A stretch of DNA of 64,000 nucleotides from Zychaea mexicana (lineage: Eukaryota; Mucoromycota; Mucoromycetes; Mucorales; Lichtheimiaceae), in assembly GCF_025766255.1 (NCBI RefSeq), contig NW_026516772.1:1-64000 (forward strand), given 5' to 3'. Position 1 is the first letter of the stretch. Every line of letters starts with the position of its first letter. Shown here in pieces: positions 12,434 to 18,700 of this stretch. Below the pieces are notes generated by a model that was not told the DNA's origin, searched no databases, and saw only the letters and a list, made by a program, of their open reading frames with translations. The position numbers and the translations under genes are program-made.

Positions 12434-13322
12434 TAGAGATTCGCACAGTTCGGTTCGGTTCCTCTCAAGAACCGAACCGACTAGAACTGACGAGAACCGT
12501 AGAACCGAATCGAAGAACCGAACCCATCATGTATATAAAAAAGGCAAGATTTGGTATCTTTAAATGAAAGCTGATGTGTGTGTTCAAATGTCGCGGTATA
12601 CTTGAATACTGCAGTAAAAAAGAATAGTTTATTATTGTACATTGAACAGCGATCTCAAAATGAATAAGAGAAACAGAATGTAAACATTCTTATACGATGT
12701 GGGTCATTGCATGGTTAAAAGATTAAAGCACAGTTTTTACGAAAAAAAGTGGAGCTTATAGTACTTACTTAGAGCGACTTAGTATTACTAGTACAATATG
12801 TTATCGTAACATTAGAGGAATTGAACCACAACTGGCAGTACATACAGCTGCTGTGTCTCTACGTGTGTATAGTGTATAGTGTCTCATAAAAGGCAAAGGG
12901 TGAATGGGTAAGATAATTCTGTTATGAGCCCCAGAATGCACAATCTCAAACGGAATGCACAAACTTGATAAAACTGATCGAGAAGCCATAATAAATCTAG
13001 TAAAGTAGTACGTTATGGAGAAAAATGCATTGTAGGTAGCAAAGTAGAGGAACAAGTAATGATGTGTGTCATGGGGACCGGCCATGGTTACGATGATTTT
13101 AATGCGATCTAGTAACCCTAGATGACTTATTAGCTAAGATATATCAGGATAGCCAAATTAATTTTTATTGAATAATTCATGTATGAATGTCTTGGCATGC
13201 ATATATTTAAAAATTTTGAATAAATAAAAATTGAATTATTTTTATTATATAAAAATAATACCGCATAATATAAAGCAAAACATATTTGTTATATTTTTTA
13301 TTTTATTACTTCAACAATCGAA

Positions 13323-15433
13323 ATGAACCAACTCAACCTTCTTGCCTTCTTAGCCATTATGGCTGAATTTGTTCCTATTTTAGGAATTACATTGACGCTC
13401 TTGATTGAAAGAGCAAAACACCTTGCTGAGAACCATCAGCATATTGATTATGAACCTCTTGTCACACAACTGAGGTCAGAACTGGAAAAAGACCTTACAC
13501 AGGCTAAAGTAGATAAAGAAACTAAAGATAATGCACGCAATAAAATCATTGGAAGAATTCGAGCATATGTGAGATTCCTCAAATCCTCAAATCCTCAATT
13601 TTCCGATGCAATGTTAGAAAATAACACCTCTGGTGCAGATTCCTCGCAGGGCGGCAAAGAATTCCGATTCCAAAATACTAAAGGGCTGTTCACATATATT
13701 TGTAAGGACTTCCATTTAACAAAAGAACAAATCATGGAATGGTTTATAAAACATGAACGTATTGGTTATCGAATCGAAAAGGCAATTGTATGTGATGAAA
13801 TTGCACCAGAAACTGGTGAGAAACATGTTCATATATGGATACAAATGAATGAGCGGTTCGACACAAAAACAGCACGCAAATTCTTTACTATCGATGGTGT
13901 TACTCCAAATATAAAACCAGGTGGTAATCCACAAAAGTCTATTAGCTACTGTATGAAAGGAAAAGATTATATTTGTTATAATATGGATCCAAATTATGAA
14001 GTTAAGACCAGAAAAATGCACCAACAGTTACTTGGATATCAATTAATCACGAAGCAGCTTAATATGCGGAAGGCTACCGAAATATATCCAGAATTGCTAT
14101 GGAAATATGATACTGTTAAATCAAATTTAAATTCTTACTTTCATGATGCAGATATGGAAAATAACCCTGGAAATAAATTACATATGTGGTCTATGTTTGG
14201 TATTGAAACAATGTTTAGTGGTAAAAATAAGATACCACAATACTGGATCGTAGGTCCATCAAATGTTGGAAAAACATATAATATTGATATGTTAGAACAA
14301 GGTGGACATAGGGCATATCTAATGAGTAAAGAAAATGATTGGTCAGATTATAAAGATGATGATTATGACTTTATATATAATGAAGAAACTGGTTCTGATT
14401 TCAAATTAACATTTTTAAATCAAATGTTAGAAGGAACACGGTTAAAACTTAATGGCAAATTCACAAAGTTAATAACTAAAAAGAAAAATATGCCAATAAT
14501 ACTGAATAGTAACTATATGCCGCACATGTTATACAAAAATAAATCAATATATGAGTTAGAACCAACGCTCAATCGTTTATATATTATCTATGTTGATAAG
14601 AACCGTAAAGGTCATATAATATGGAATCCATACACAATGAAGGTGAAGGATTATGAAAATAAGTTCATGTATTATGAAAACATGGATATGTATGAAGACT
14701 TATACAAAGATGAATTCGAAAACGAATACCAAGATCAGCATACATTTATCCGTTATGCACATAACAGTGGTCAGGATGGTATTAAAAAATATACACCGAT
14801 GGATAAAACAGTAGAGGAACTGCAAGAATTAGCTGATACAGAAGAATATATAAAGGAACAAGAAAAGAAACATAATAGTAATAATAAACAGAACAATAAA
14901 CAACATAAAACACCTCAACAAAATAATAGAGGATGGTCAACTGTAAAGGCACCCCTACCAGAAGATTGTAGACATTGGGAGGATGTATTAAATGATATAA
15001 AATGTGATGAAGTTATAACTGATAACATCGATTGGGAAAACCCACCACAAGACACAGAGAAACATAAATATATAGATGTCAGTACATCTGAATCAGAGCA
15101 AAGCAGTGACTGTAATATACCTAATACTATACCAAAACGTAAAAGAAAAAAAGACAAAATAAAAATAAACGGAGAAACAAGAAAGTAGTAGAAGAAATAA
15201 AACCAAAAGAATATTTTAAAAAGCATAAGGATATAAAACAGGCTATAATAGAAGATATAGATATAACAAAAGAAACTGACGTCAAAAACAAATCAACAGG
15301 TACTAATATAAGTACAAGTATAACTAATGAATGCATAAAACATAAATATAATTGGGCAAGTAAACGAAAGGTTGATGCGGTCAGTTTCAATATGAGGTTT
15401 TTTAATAAGCAAATAAATAAGAAATTAACTTAG
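13323..15433 (+). CDS. CRESS-like Rep: HUH endonuclease + SF3 helicase, with possible -1 frame extension
   Basis: The zero frame runs 13323-15188 (621 aa). The HUH domain has motif I LFTYIC (residues ~122-127), a GRS-like block ARKFFTI..PNI (~184-197), motif II HVHIWIQ (~168-174, the two metal-binding His) and motif III YCMK (~209-212, catalytic Tyr and Lys). The SF3 helicase has Walker A GPSNVGKT (~311-318), a Walker B-like DFIYNEE (~349-355) and motif C IILNSN (~392-397). Such proteins nick and unwind DNA for rolling-circle replication; the GRS block points to the geminivirus/genomovirus side of CRESS Reps. Unusual are an extra ~110-residue N-terminus (hydrophobic then helical) and a long charged C-terminal tail with PKRKRKK, a likely nuclear signal. 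After the stop at 15187, the -1 frame stays open to 15433, ending INKKLT. The switch would fit the A7 run at 15146-15152. Confidence 0.85.
15146..15152 (+). promoter_or_regulatory. Candidate -1 frameshift slippery heptamer A_AAA_AAA
   Basis: The zero-frame codons here are AGA AAA AAA, giving the canonical X_XXY_YYZ arrangement. A -1 slip would enter a frame that bypasses the stop at 15187 and adds about 90 residues. An alternative is an ordinary homopolymer indel in a decaying or mis-sequenced gene. Confidence 0.4.
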
Positions 15434-16276
15434 AGCTGAATACCATGTGTGGCCATATATTCATGTAGCATTTCCCGGGAATTAAACTTATCAACTGTTA
15501 ACCAACTATTATCCTTTACACTATATCCAACCCACTTAACCTCAAATATGTACTTATTATCAGTATACACATGTCCTACAATCTTCTCAATTTCATATGA
15601 ATTACCATGTTCTATATTTCTCTGTTCTCTTTGATTTTTTCTCTTGCGTTTAGATGTATTATTTTCAGTTTCTTCCTCACTATCTATAGCCATATCTATT
15701 GATTGATTAATATTAAGCTGTAGAAATTTCTGCTGCATGTCAACCATTTCGTTATATTCAGTATTTACTTTTTGCTCATTTGAAAATACCAAGTCAAGTT
15801 TGTTTTTCTTACTTGGGAATTCAAAGTCTTTTCCATACCATAATTTATGATGTGGTTGTACCTCTATATTATACTTATTTACAAATCGCCATATATTAGT
15901 AAGAATACAAGCAACACGAAACTGAATATTATAATATCTTATATCAGATATTTGCAATGCTGCACGATTATTATTGAATCGTTCAAATTTAGAGCCTAAC
16001 ATAGAAAACTGTACTTCTATTGCTGAACGAAATGATCCAAACTTGTTATTAAAGTATGTCTCATTGATTGTTAACTTTTGTCCTGGTTCTTTTCTTATGG
16101 GATGTAAAAAATTACGATCATAAAAACTATATCCAGCATCGGTCGCATTATCTTTGAACTTTTGTATAAATAAATTATATCCACCATCCATCCCTAAACA
16201 ATCTGCCTCACTTATTTTTTTATATAATTTCATATTAATAAACATAGTACCATCATTTCCGATAGCACATTTTTCA

Positions 16277-16750
16277 GATAGATGAATAAATTATAACAAT
16301 AAAATGTATTATTGATTTATATATAATAAATAAAGTACAATTTGATATTTAATATAAATATTTTGTTAGTTTATATTTATAAATTTAAGATATTAAAAAA
16401 ATAATTTAAAAATATATAAAATTTAAAATTATTTATCATTATTTATTTATTAAAAAGAATATTAATAATTTTTACCATTGTAAAAAAAAGAAACTAAAAC
16501 ATATTATTCATAATAAATAAAAATTTGTAAAATAAAACATAAATAATTTTAATAATTGAAAGTAGCGGAATGGTAGTGAGCACCTCCCTCCTTTACATGA
16601 GGAACTTGTGACGAAATGTAACTTGACAATGAGATTTAGAGGTAATGGGTTGGTGAGGGTGTCCAAGCCCATTACGTGTTTTCAATAATAAAAACTTTCC
16701 TTAAATTATATATAATTAATAGTTTAAAATTAATGATTATTCATCATACT
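16277..16750. mobile_element. MITE-like insert inside the DDE gene
   Basis: The ends form imperfect inverted repeats: CAGATAGATGAATAAATTATAA from 16275 against CAGTATGATGAATAATCATTAA read inward from 16751. The insert is very AT-rich except for a core at about 16560-16680. It interrupts the transposase between two codons' worth of sequence that rejoin in frame. Its CAG start and following ACAATAAAA resemble the right end of the surrounding inner element, so it may be a non-autonomous relative. Target duplication not resolved. Confidence 0.6.
16642..16675. repeat. Stem-loop in the core of the MITE-like insert
   Basis: GTAATGGGTTGG pairs with CCAAGCCCATTAC (one bulged C) around the loop TGAGGGTGT. 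It is the strongest structure in an otherwise AT-rich 474 bp. Origin-like or RNA-like; no nonanucleotide of known CRESS origins is present. Confidence 0.6.
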
Positions 16751-17910
16751 GAAACATGTGTAATTATTTCATTCATATCCTGTATAACTTGTGTACGTAC
16801 AGCTGGCCCTTTTAATTTATATGAATATAATTGTGAATGTGACTCATTTGGTTTATAATACTTTATTTTACTATCATGCCCATCAATAAATAGTGTAACA
16901 TTCTTAAAACCATCTGGATTGTTTATTATTGCTGATAGAATGCGAATACGTGGCGATGAGAACATACTATCTAGATCTTGTTTTACCTTTTTATTCAATT
17001 CATTATAGTTAGTAATCCAGAACCGCTTATATAAATCATAAAACGTTGCATATGGCATAACAGTATGCATATCCTTTCCCGATACACCTGATACCATATG
17101 ATATAATAATGCAAGTCCTTTTTCAATCTCACGATATGGCCCTGGATATTCAATATTTCCATATAAAACTGTAAGAAAATAAAATACAGGTATAAATCCA
17201 AATCTATTAAGTAATACATCCTTTATATCATTTATTGTATTATTCTTCATATCTTTAATAGCTGTTCTATGATTAAATCTATGTTGCATTTCAGGCCAAG
17301 ATTTATCAAGAAAAGTCCATTTATTATCAATTAAATTTTTAATTTCAATATCAAGTTGTTCAATGTGTTGTGTTGTGTTCATTTTTATTTGTTGTTATGT
17401 ACTTTTAACGATTGCTCTTTTTTTTCTCGTGGGGGGCTACCAATATAAATAAAAAAAATTCAATTTTTATTATTTTTATTGTAAATAAATAAATAATTCG
17501 GCCACTGATGGTTATACTGATCATAGCAATTTTATTATCTATATTACAGCTAGTAGATTATAATTGGTTAGACAACTAATAGCAGGACGCCCATGGGCGG
17601 AGAAAGCAAGCTGCTGTCTGAAGAAGTGTTTTTTTATTTTTTTCTCTTCTCTTCTTTACTATTTTTTACTCCCTTCTGCTTTTGCAGGTTTTGTTAAGTT
17701 TTTCAATAAAGTATGGCCTGCAAATACACTACTTCGTGGTCTTTTCAGAATAACATTGTTCGTAACTTCCATTATAGCCTACTTAATACTAATTACCAAA
17801 ATCGCTGATTGCAATCTTCTGCCTCTCGGTTCTTCGGTTCTATGTATACAGAACCGGTTCGGTTTCGGTTCGGTTCGGTTCCGGTTCTACAGTTCTGATA
17901 CAGATCCCTA

Positions 17911-17918
17911 ACTATAAT
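17911..17918. repeat. Target-site duplication, right copy (ACTATAAT)
   Basis: Matches 12426-12433 exactly and follows the terminal CCCTA of the outer element. Confidence 0.85.
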
Positions 17919-18133
17919 ATTTGAAATATAATAAAAGTAGTATTGAATTCTACTATTTATTAAATAAATAATTATTTTTAAGTATAAAAAAAATATATAC
18001 AGCACTATGAGAAGCAAATTATTATGCTATGTGAAGAGTCGATAAGATGATGAGGAAAAGTATGAATTATATTATTTTTTAAAGAATAAAATTCGTTGTG
18101 TATAACTTTTGTTTTAACTACGACATTCAACAA

Positions 18134-18205
18134 GGAGTTGTAACTCAGTGGTAGAGTGGAGGATTGCAGATCCTCTGGTCACGTGTTCGAACCACGTCAG
18201 CTCCT
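18134..18205 (+). tRNA. tRNA-Cys (GCA)
   Basis: 72 bases fold as a standard cloverleaf: acceptor GGAGTTG/CAGCTCC (one G-T pair), D arm ACTC-AGTGGTA-GAGT, anticodon stem GAGGA/TCCTC with loop TTGCAGA (anticodon GCA), variable TGGTC, and T arm ACGTG-TTCGAAC-CACGT. No intron and no encoded CCA. Internal A box (TAACTCAGTGG) and B box (GTTCGAACC) are present. T runs at 18243-18256 can terminate Pol III. Confidence 0.96.
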
Positions 18206-18256
18206 GAACAAAAATTGATCTTCTCAAACTGAGAAAATCATTGTTTTAGTTTTTTT

Positions 18257-18700
18257 CTGTCAAGTCGCTTTTTGGCGGTGGATCCGTAGCCAATGGGAAA
18301 GGAGAAGAACAGGAGATGATACGAGGATAGAGGGTGTCGTAGCCAGAAATGGCTGGTAATTCCTTTTACCTTTTTGGTTCTCTTGCCCCGTTTGGTGGAA
18401 CACTTCTTTAGTCACACAATCCGCAGCTATGACTTCTTCCTCTTATCGCGCAGTCGACCATTACATCATTACTCAGCAAACACTGCTGCGCAGCTACTCT
18501 TTGTCATCGTTATTAACACAATTGTATATTATATTATTATCCATCATTACCGCAGTAGCTTAGACAAAACATCTGAATATCCCTCCTCATCGCAAACAAT
18601 AAACAGTATCAATCATCTTCTCTTTATTCTTTTGTTTCCCTTTTGTTCCTCTCTCTTCTCATTGGCTACGGATTGATCCGCCAAAAAGTGACACGACAAG
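18257..18700. mobile_element. MITE with ~40-bp terminal inverted repeats
   Basis: The left end CTGTCAAGTCGCTTTTTGGCGG...ATCCGTAGCCAATGGGAAAGG matches the right end read inward, TTGTCGTGTCACTTTTTGGCGG...ATCCGTAGCCAATGAGAAGAG. No transposase frame lies inside. The shared TTTTTGGCGG and ATCCGTAGCCAAT blocks are unmistakable. No clear target duplication was found. It lies ~50 bases downstream of the tRNA-Cys gene. Confidence 0.8.

What the first reader, a model, noticed from the sequence alone, without database searches (positions are those of the whole stretch)
13145..17507. Mobile element coding both a CRESS-type Rep and a DDE transposase with chromodomain
Seen: intact HUH motifs, SF3 helicase motifs, an opposing DDE gene with a chromodomain, an AT-rich block with imperfect inverted ends. 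Known: CRESS Reps drive rolling-circle replication, while DDE enzymes drive cut-and-paste; chromodomains steer integration of chromoviruses. Inference: one element may combine a replicative initiator with an integrase, e.g. an episome-forming transposon or a virus-like element that integrates by DDE chemistry. I recognise no named family with this gene content.
Basis: partly seen in the sequence, partly recalled or inferred. Interest (0 to 1): 0.9.

Follow-up and report, generated by a model that had tools for sequence, protein, structure and literature searches.

The report
Fungal transposon with viral-type replication gene
In a mould genome, a repeated jumping gene carries both a cut-and-paste transposase and a replication enzyme of the kind used by tiny circular DNA viruses, so one element may be able both to copy its DNA and to insert it.

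Summary
The finding is real. Window 13073-17591 (not 13145-17507) is one copy of a dispersed transposon of about 4.05 kb: short imperfect TIRs, a 3-bp TSD (CAT) and empty sites elsewhere. It carries a CRESS-type Rep (HUH + SF3) convergent with a DDE_Tnp_4 transposase that has an HP1-like chromodomain. Both genes show purifying selection (dN/dS 0.09-0.17 in deep pairs). This copy is damaged: a 465-bp MITE splits the DDE gene and Rep is shortened. The most unusual feature is seven head-to-tail junctions of two elements, each with a near-identical 15-nt spacer. This suggests a joined-end, perhaps circular, replicating form, but array growth by crossing-over is not excluded. Elements without Rep, or without DDE, use the same or similar ends. 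Rep plus transposase in a fungal transposon has a precedent (Tuber melanosporum, PMC3198968), so I rate this a new variant of a known kind. Integration by the DDE enzyme is well supported; rolling-circle replication by Rep is inferred.

The parts
13073..17591 (+). whole transposon copy (4519 bp here, including a 465-bp nested insert; several other copies 4.03-4.08 kb)
   Evidence: ends from alignment to other copies; end pairs in the genome; empty site
13070..13072 (.). target site duplication CAT, left copy
17592..17594 (.). target site duplication CAT, right copy
13073..13087 (+). left terminus GGGGACCGGCCATGG (imperfect TIR)
17578..17591 (+). right terminus AATAGCAGGACGCC (imperfect TIR)
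13223..13246 (+). subterminal inverted repeat, left arm (24 nt, 96% complementary to 17448-17471)
   Evidence: pair I7
17448..17471 (+). subterminal inverted repeat, right arm
   Evidence: pair I7
13323..15188 (+). Rep gene (621 aa): N-terminal helical region, HUH endonuclease, SF3 helicase; shorter at the C-terminus than in several other copies
13662..13988 (+). HUH endonuclease domain (about aa 114-222); HVH at 13824-13832, YxxK at 13947-13958
14253..14513 (+). SF3 helicase core: Walker A 14253-14276, Walker B-like YNEE 14376-14387, motif C 14505-14513
   Evidence: motif names recalled
15338..15427 (+). tail of the Rep gene in another frame in this copy; in the Rep frame in several other copies
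15430..17382 (-). DDE_Tnp_4 transposase gene with C-terminal chromodomain, interrupted in this copy (uninterrupted elsewhere as a 494-aa protein)
15487..15597 (-). chromodomain, HP1-like
16882..16884 (-). first catalytic Asp of the DDE triad (D167 of the uninterrupted protein); the second and third, D243 and E300, lie at 16186-16188 and 16015-16017
   Evidence: conserved columns of A2; residues read at these places
16281..16745 (.). nested MITE-like insert in the DDE gene; TIR GATGAATAA/TTATTCATC, TSD ATA

Best explanation
This is a TIR DNA transposon of the PIF/Harbinger-like (PHIS) superfamily that encodes two enzymes acting on its own DNA. The DDE transposase cuts at the termini and inserts the element, making a 3-bp TSD; its chromodomain probably steers insertion to H3K9-methylated chromatin. 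The CRESS-type Rep nicks and replicates a joined-end form of the element (an excised circle or a head-to-tail dimer), which raises the number of copies available for insertion. Shown: element limits, TSD and empty site, recurrence of the gene pair, purifying selection on both genes, and joined ends with a constant 15-nt spacer. Inferred: that Rep nicks at or near the junction, that circles exist, and where insertion is steered.
For: One unit: 43 of 63 Rep loci have the close-subfamily DDE gene convergent within 3.5 kb, 27 of them at 247-298 bp. End pairs give several elements of 4.03-4.08 kb.

DDE integration: 3-bp TSD in 7 of 12 single copies with both flanks read, where 12/64, about 0.2, would be expected by chance; gap-free empty sites in L027 and L060.

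Selected Rep: dN/dS 0.10-0.17 in pairs with dS above 0.4, and 0.12 between two Rep-only copies. DDE pairs against a related subfamily give 0.09-0.10.

Joined ends: six junctions by pattern plus one read, all with a 15-nt spacer; 11 of its 15 positions are the same in all seven. In the C115 dimer the outermost 3 bp match (TCA/TCA).

Fold: the HUH domain matches Vientovirus FB, TYLCV and WDV Reps. The chromodomain matches HP1.
Against: No reads or circles were examined. The four junctions folded give weak structures (z from +1.1 to -2.1). No CRESS nonanucleotide lies in non-coding parts of the window element or of the C51 X element. Elements without Rep (X-DDE, X-only) also spread, so Rep is not needed in cis. 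Five of the 12 single copies show no TSD. Of three composites whose outermost flanks were read, only C115 shows a match; C51 and C303 do not. A spacer conserved to this degree is also what neutral descent from one ancestral tandem would give. The DDE core has no significant fold match of its own; the best transposase is Tn5 at E 0.024 or below in rank 44 of the list (E 0.023).
Confidence: 0.5

Rival explanations
1. Rep is a non-replicative partner of the transposase. It binds the termini and opens or nicks DNA, taking the place that the Myb/SANT protein (ORF1) holds in PIF/Harbinger elements. The tandems come from one ancestral adjacent pair that spread and was reshuffled by crossing-over.
For: Most candidate autonomous PIF/Harbinger elements have a second, DNA-binding ORF (PMC4482050, parts 1-2 read). 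An alternative partner gene X sits in the same place in X-DDE elements and shares leader, linker and tail with the Rep gene. Copies are mosaics: SF3 and DDE distances correlate at r=0.07.
Against: The HUH and SF3 motifs are kept between species and Rep is under constraint, which mere binding would not need.
Confidence: 0.22
2. Rep belongs to its own selfish mini-element. Rep-only and X-only elements are parasites that borrow the DDE transposase in trans, and Rep-DDE copies are frequent recombinants among them.
For: Three Rep-only copies share one deletion (15643 joined to 17420) and two of them have a TSD (TTG in C68, CTC in C140). Rep stays constrained between two of them (dN/dS 0.12). Modules are reshuffled.
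Against: Those Rep-only copies still carry the end of the DDE gene, so they derive from Rep-DDE elements by deletion. Rep with convergent DDE is the commonest arrangement (43 of 63 Rep loci).
Confidence: 0.15
3. A CRESS virus or plasmid acquired a transposase and became endogenous, so these are integrated copies of a replicating virus-like element.
For: CRESS-type Rep; constant joined-end junctions; DDE-type integration.
Against: Pfam finds no capsid in Rep, DDE or X. Of 21 pattern matches in viral contigs and 39 in genome contigs none encodes a relative of Rep. Of 70 more distant DDE C-part matches (under 78% identity) 63 have no Rep match within 3.5 kb, which suggests that a transposon lineage acquired Rep.
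Confidence: 0.1

Closest known systems
Geminivirus-like transposon of Tuber melanosporum (Liu et al. 2011, PMC3198968; section 8 and passages read)
   Same: Repeated fungal element (42 Rep genes or remnants) with a CRESS-type Rep ORF, transposase ORFs and TIRs
   Different: There: interrupted Rep, two damaged transposase ORFs, 37-bp TIRs, no obvious TSD. Here: one DDE_Tnp_4-chromodomain gene, short imperfect TIRs, 3-bp TSD with empty site, partner X, 15-nt junctions. The sequences were not compared.
PIF/Harbinger and other PHIS groups (PMC4482050, parts 1-2 of 4 read)
   Same: DDE_Tnp_4-type transposase, 3-bp TSD, TIR beginning with G, about 4.1 kb, two ORFs
   Different: TSDs are not TWA; the second ORF is Rep (or X), not Myb/SANT or YqaJ; chromodomain on the transposase
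CRESS-DNA virus Reps (Geminiviridae, Redondoviridae)
   Same: HUH fold and motifs, SF3 helicase motifs
   Different: No capsid found; chromosomal, TIR-bounded, with a transposase; no nonanucleotide stem-loop found
Helitrons (recalled)
   Same: HUH enzyme and helicase in a eukaryotic transposon
   Different: Helitrons have no TIR or TSD, a different helicase family and no DDE enzyme (recalled)

Membership tests
PIF/Harbinger group of PHIS | DDE_Tnp_4-type transposase with DDE triad | tested here: met
   PF13359, 44.1 bits against cut-off 24.8; D167 and E300 invariant, D243 in at least 90% of 40 sequences
PIF/Harbinger group of PHIS | 3-bp TSD of sequence TWA | tested here: not met
   Length met (7 of 12 single copies), sequence not: CAT, ACA, ATG, AAT, TTT, TTG, CTC
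PIF/Harbinger group of PHIS | second ORF with Myb/SANT domain | tested here: not met
   Second ORF is Rep; no Myb/SANT match in Rep or X
PHIS superfamily, broad sense | related transposase, short TIR, about 3.5-4.8 kb, two ORFs | tested here: met
   no tree with named PHIS groups was built
CRESS-type Rep | HUH motifs with single Tyr plus SF3 helicase motifs | tested here: met
   Gemini_AL1 at E<=0.01 in 8 of 11 members of A1, the window's own match being below Pfam's cut-off (18.7 against 24); fold matches for the HUH domain; the SF3 part of the model is of low confidence
CRESS replicon | stem-loop origin with nonanucleotide | tested here: not met
   no TAATATTAC in the window element or the C51 X element; one NANTATTAC-type match, inside the Rep ORF; four junctions fold weakly
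CRESS replicon | circular form replicating in cells | not testable with these tools
   no reads or circular-DNA data
Geminivirus-like transposon of Tuber | homologous Rep and transposases | not tested
   the Tuber sequences were not compared here

The most novel reading that the evidence does not exclude
A transposon with an episomal replicating phase: a circle (Rep-DDE alone, or Rep-DDE with X) in which right end, 15-nt spacer and left end form the origin. Rep copies it by rolling circle, and the DDE enzyme takes unit or dimer lengths out of it and inserts them into chromatin marked for its chromodomain. That X lies both before and after Rep-DDE with the same spacer would then be circular permutation.
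Probability: 0.28. Interest if true: 0.9.

Novelty: new variant of a known kind. Interest (0 to 1): 0.63.

Why it matters
CRESS viruses are not known to have an integrase of their own, and TIR transposons normally have no replicase. Here the two enzymes are joined in a multicopy element in which both genes are under selection. That makes it possible to test directly whether a viral-type Rep can amplify a cut-and-paste transposon, and how virus-type replicons become chromosomal elements.

Tried and rejected

Led nowhere: viral contigs and genome-contig scans with the Rep alignment; NCBIfam (nothing for Rep, one sub-cut-off match for DDE); Pfam for X (only matches below cut-off); Rfam for 12500-18500 (the tRNA, and one SNORD37 match below its gathering score); literature beyond PMC3198968 (listings). 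The outer TSD of two further composites was checked and not found: C51 AAT/TTC and C303 ATA/AAT.
Full report
WHAT IS THERE. The window is G000:C12:1-64000 of a genome of 50,341,430 bases in 305 contigs. Its nearest named relatives for these proteins are Circinella minor (DDE 79%; Rep fragments 51-84%), Rhizopus stolonifer (Rep 54%) and Mucor hiemalis (DDE 56%), so the host is probably a Mucorales fungus; it was not identified further. The Rep ORF is 13323-15188 (+). The DDE ORF runs on the other strand from 17382 to 15430 and is broken by an insert. In an uninterrupted copy the DDE protein is 494 aa with DDE_Tnp_4 and a chromodomain.

LIMITS. BLASTN of window 12800-17900 against 70 loci shows sharp ends at about 13073 and 17591-17594 in most copies that reach them; some copies are truncated or interrupted before an end. 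The left end reads GGGGACCGGCCATGG and the right end AATAGCAGGACGCC; with the right end reversed they are only roughly alike. Single copies with both flanks read: 12. A 3-bp TSD is seen in 7: window CAT, C79:255k ACA, C79:92k ATG, C179 AAT, C112:734k TTT, C68 TTG, C140 CTC. It is not seen in 5: C262 TAG/AAC, C35:407k ATT/ATA, C242 TAA/CGA, C46:79k TTC/TAA, C223 GAT/CTA. Left out of this count: copies with one end truncated or not fetched, C63 (its right end belongs to an inverted piece), and members of tandems. The flanks of the window copy, joined with one CAT, match L060 (97.0%) and L027 (96.4%) over 197 bases without gaps; the place on C174 matches at 85.8% with gaps. So the empty site exists. 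Pairs of left and right ends give several copies of 4.03-4.08 kb (C179, C262, C79 twice, C46 twice, C57, C295); other pairs are longer (C256 4.4, C271 4.9, C135 5.8 kb) or shorter (C48 3.7 kb) (40 and 41 matches listed, 40 scored of 103 and of 77 candidates).

RECURRENCE. The 77 Rep matches (a lower bound; 71 of 145 candidates were scored) fall into 63 loci. 66 of the 136 C-part DDE matches, those at 78% identity or more, fall into 63 loci; the N-part matches were not used. 43 of the 63 Rep loci have such a DDE downstream and convergent within 3.5 kb; 20 Rep loci and 20 DDE loci do not. Two pairs lie on the same strand (within 1.5 kb) and three are divergent (within 3 kb); two of the divergent ones (C115, C174) are the tandems described below. 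Of the 70 dropped DDE matches 7 lie within 3.5 kb of a Rep match, 6 of them convergent, and 63 do not; counting the dropped ones would add two Rep loci (C273:500006, C83:9184). Rep queries from other sources give 65 and 75 matches in this genome. Of 19 doubtful rows compared, two short pieces (C32:9876, C63:399) are not at a known place; otherwise I saw no second Rep family. Since most distant DDE copies (44-65% identity) have no Rep nearby, a transposon lineage probably acquired Rep. In another species, Rep P0002 and DDE P0033, both from JGI, have a longest contig of exactly 4459 bases, so they probably share it; the contig could not be fetched. P0033 shows no chromodomain, so the chromodomain is not constant.

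STATE OF THE GENES. The window copy is damaged. A 465-bp MITE-like insert (16281-16745; 9-bp TIR, TSD ATA) splits the DDE gene, and the Rep tail lies in another frame. As a class, Rep is under purifying selection: among 12 copies (32 of 66 pairs printed; stops skipped), pairs with dS above 0.4 give dN/dS 0.10-0.17 and shallower pairs 0.17-0.64, except one near-identical pair with 1.28 on 11 differences. For the DDE C-part (8 copies) pairs with the related subfamily of C212:136k and C63:23.9k give 0.09-0.10, and shallower pairs up to 0.55. Gene X seems less constrained: 0.48 in the one pair tested. Sixteen copies compared by segment (best BLAST piece per segment) are mosaics. Leaving aside one near-identical copy, the Rep N-terminus comes in two forms, 4-7% and 24-26% from the window copy. 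The DDE part differs by at most 3.4% from the window copy, and SF3 and DDE distances correlate at only r=0.07. Recombination between copies is therefore common.

DERIVATIVES. Three copies (C68, C140, C174) keep Rep and both ends but have lost 15644-17419; they still carry the end of the DDE gene, so they are deletion products. Copies at C115 and C112 keep DDE but have another gene, X, where the Rep core would be. X has no Pfam match above cut-off and occurs at about 30 more loci at 42-58% identity; the one at C51 is an X-only element of about 1.15 kb with similar ends. X and the Rep gene share the leader (window 13154-13277), a linker (13582-13651, 87-89% DNA identity) and, in X-DDE copies, the C-terminal tail. 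The second gene is therefore a slot with interchangeable cores.

JUNCTIONS. A pattern joining right end and left end with a gap of 3-33 found 8 matches (2 with the pattern reversed). Six of the 8 have a spacer of exactly 15 nt: C51, C79, C115, C174, C194, C303. The other two are C32 (9-nt spacer) and C146 (probably chance). A seventh 15-nt junction was read at C53. The spacers are nearly identical (AATTTTAAAAATTCA and variants; 11 of 15 positions the same in all seven). Orders: X then Rep (C51, C79, C194); Rep-DDE then X (C53, C303); X-DDE then Rep-only (C115); Rep-DDE then Rep-only (C174). C51 and C194 may be copies of one event. At C115 the outermost flanks are TCA and TCA, as if the dimer had inserted as a unit; the spacer there also ends in TCA, so insertion of the second element beside the first is possible too. 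At C51 (if the right end 11 kb away belongs to it) and C303 the outermost flanks do not match; for the other four they were not both read. In two cases a single copy and a dimer share the second element and its right flank but differ from the left terminus outward, to within three bases: C79:255k versus C79:237k (99.75%) and C140 versus C174 (96%). For C79 the left flank of the single copy was searched and not found beside the dimer; for C140 this was not searched. That is what one-ended copying would give, but rearrangement is not excluded.

MECHANISM. Integration by the DDE enzyme rests on TSD, empty site, termini and a conserved triad (anatomy shown; catalysis inferred). The DDE model is confident (mean pLDDT 85.6). 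Its chromodomain matches HP1 chromodomains that bind H3K9me; its core has no significant match, the best transposase being Tn5 at E 0.023. The HP1 aromatic-cage residues (positions recalled) appear to be kept, so steering to methylated chromatin is a fair inference. Rep is intact in motif and fold at the HUH domain; the whole model is of low confidence (mean pLDDT 53.6). Its most natural role is to nick and replicate a joined-end form. The constant spacer fits a templated junction, but descent from one ancestral tandem and growth by crossing-over would give the same picture. The four junctions folded are not convincing origin hairpins, and no typical nonanucleotide is present outside the coding region of the window element or in the C51 X element.

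COMPARISON. Liu et al. 2011 (PMC3198968; [quoted passage not shown] The broad kind is therefore known. Against the PHIS groups (PMC4482050, parts 1-2 of 4 read) the element fits by transposase, size and TSD length, but not by TSD sequence or second ORF. In the listings of my literature searches I saw no further precedent (open-licence PMC papers only). PMC6668415 and PMC10175614 were seen as passages only.

Noticed in passing
window 16281-16745: Nested MITE-like insert, 465 bp, TIR GATGAATAA/TTATTCATC, TSD ATA, with a GC-richer centre that looks tRNA-like by eye; neither ARAGORN nor Rfam calls it.
   Followed up: partly
L042:518-1501, L072:391-1185, L073:419-1318: Gene X: interchangeable with the Rep core as second gene; no Pfam match above cut-off; about 30 further loci in the genome.
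   Followed up: partly
G000:C79 237-241k and 253-257k; C140 and C174: Pairs of copies whose identity starts at the left terminus and runs through the right end into the flank, as in one-ended copying.
   Followed up: partly
G000:C46, C112, C120, C271, C273: Copies of the element repeat at spacings near 10 kb or in clusters, as if in tandem segmental duplications.
   Followed up: no
window 12800-13072 and 17592-17876: The element sits inside another dispersed repeat (also in L019, L027, L060) whose outer parts hold ACCGAACCGAAC-like runs.
   Followed up: partly
window 18133-18206: tRNA-Cys (GCA) gene about 540 bp beyond the right end.
   Followed up: no
L065 2317-3466: Right flank of the C262 copy has long ORFs that look like a retroelement polyprotein by eye.
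   Followed up: no
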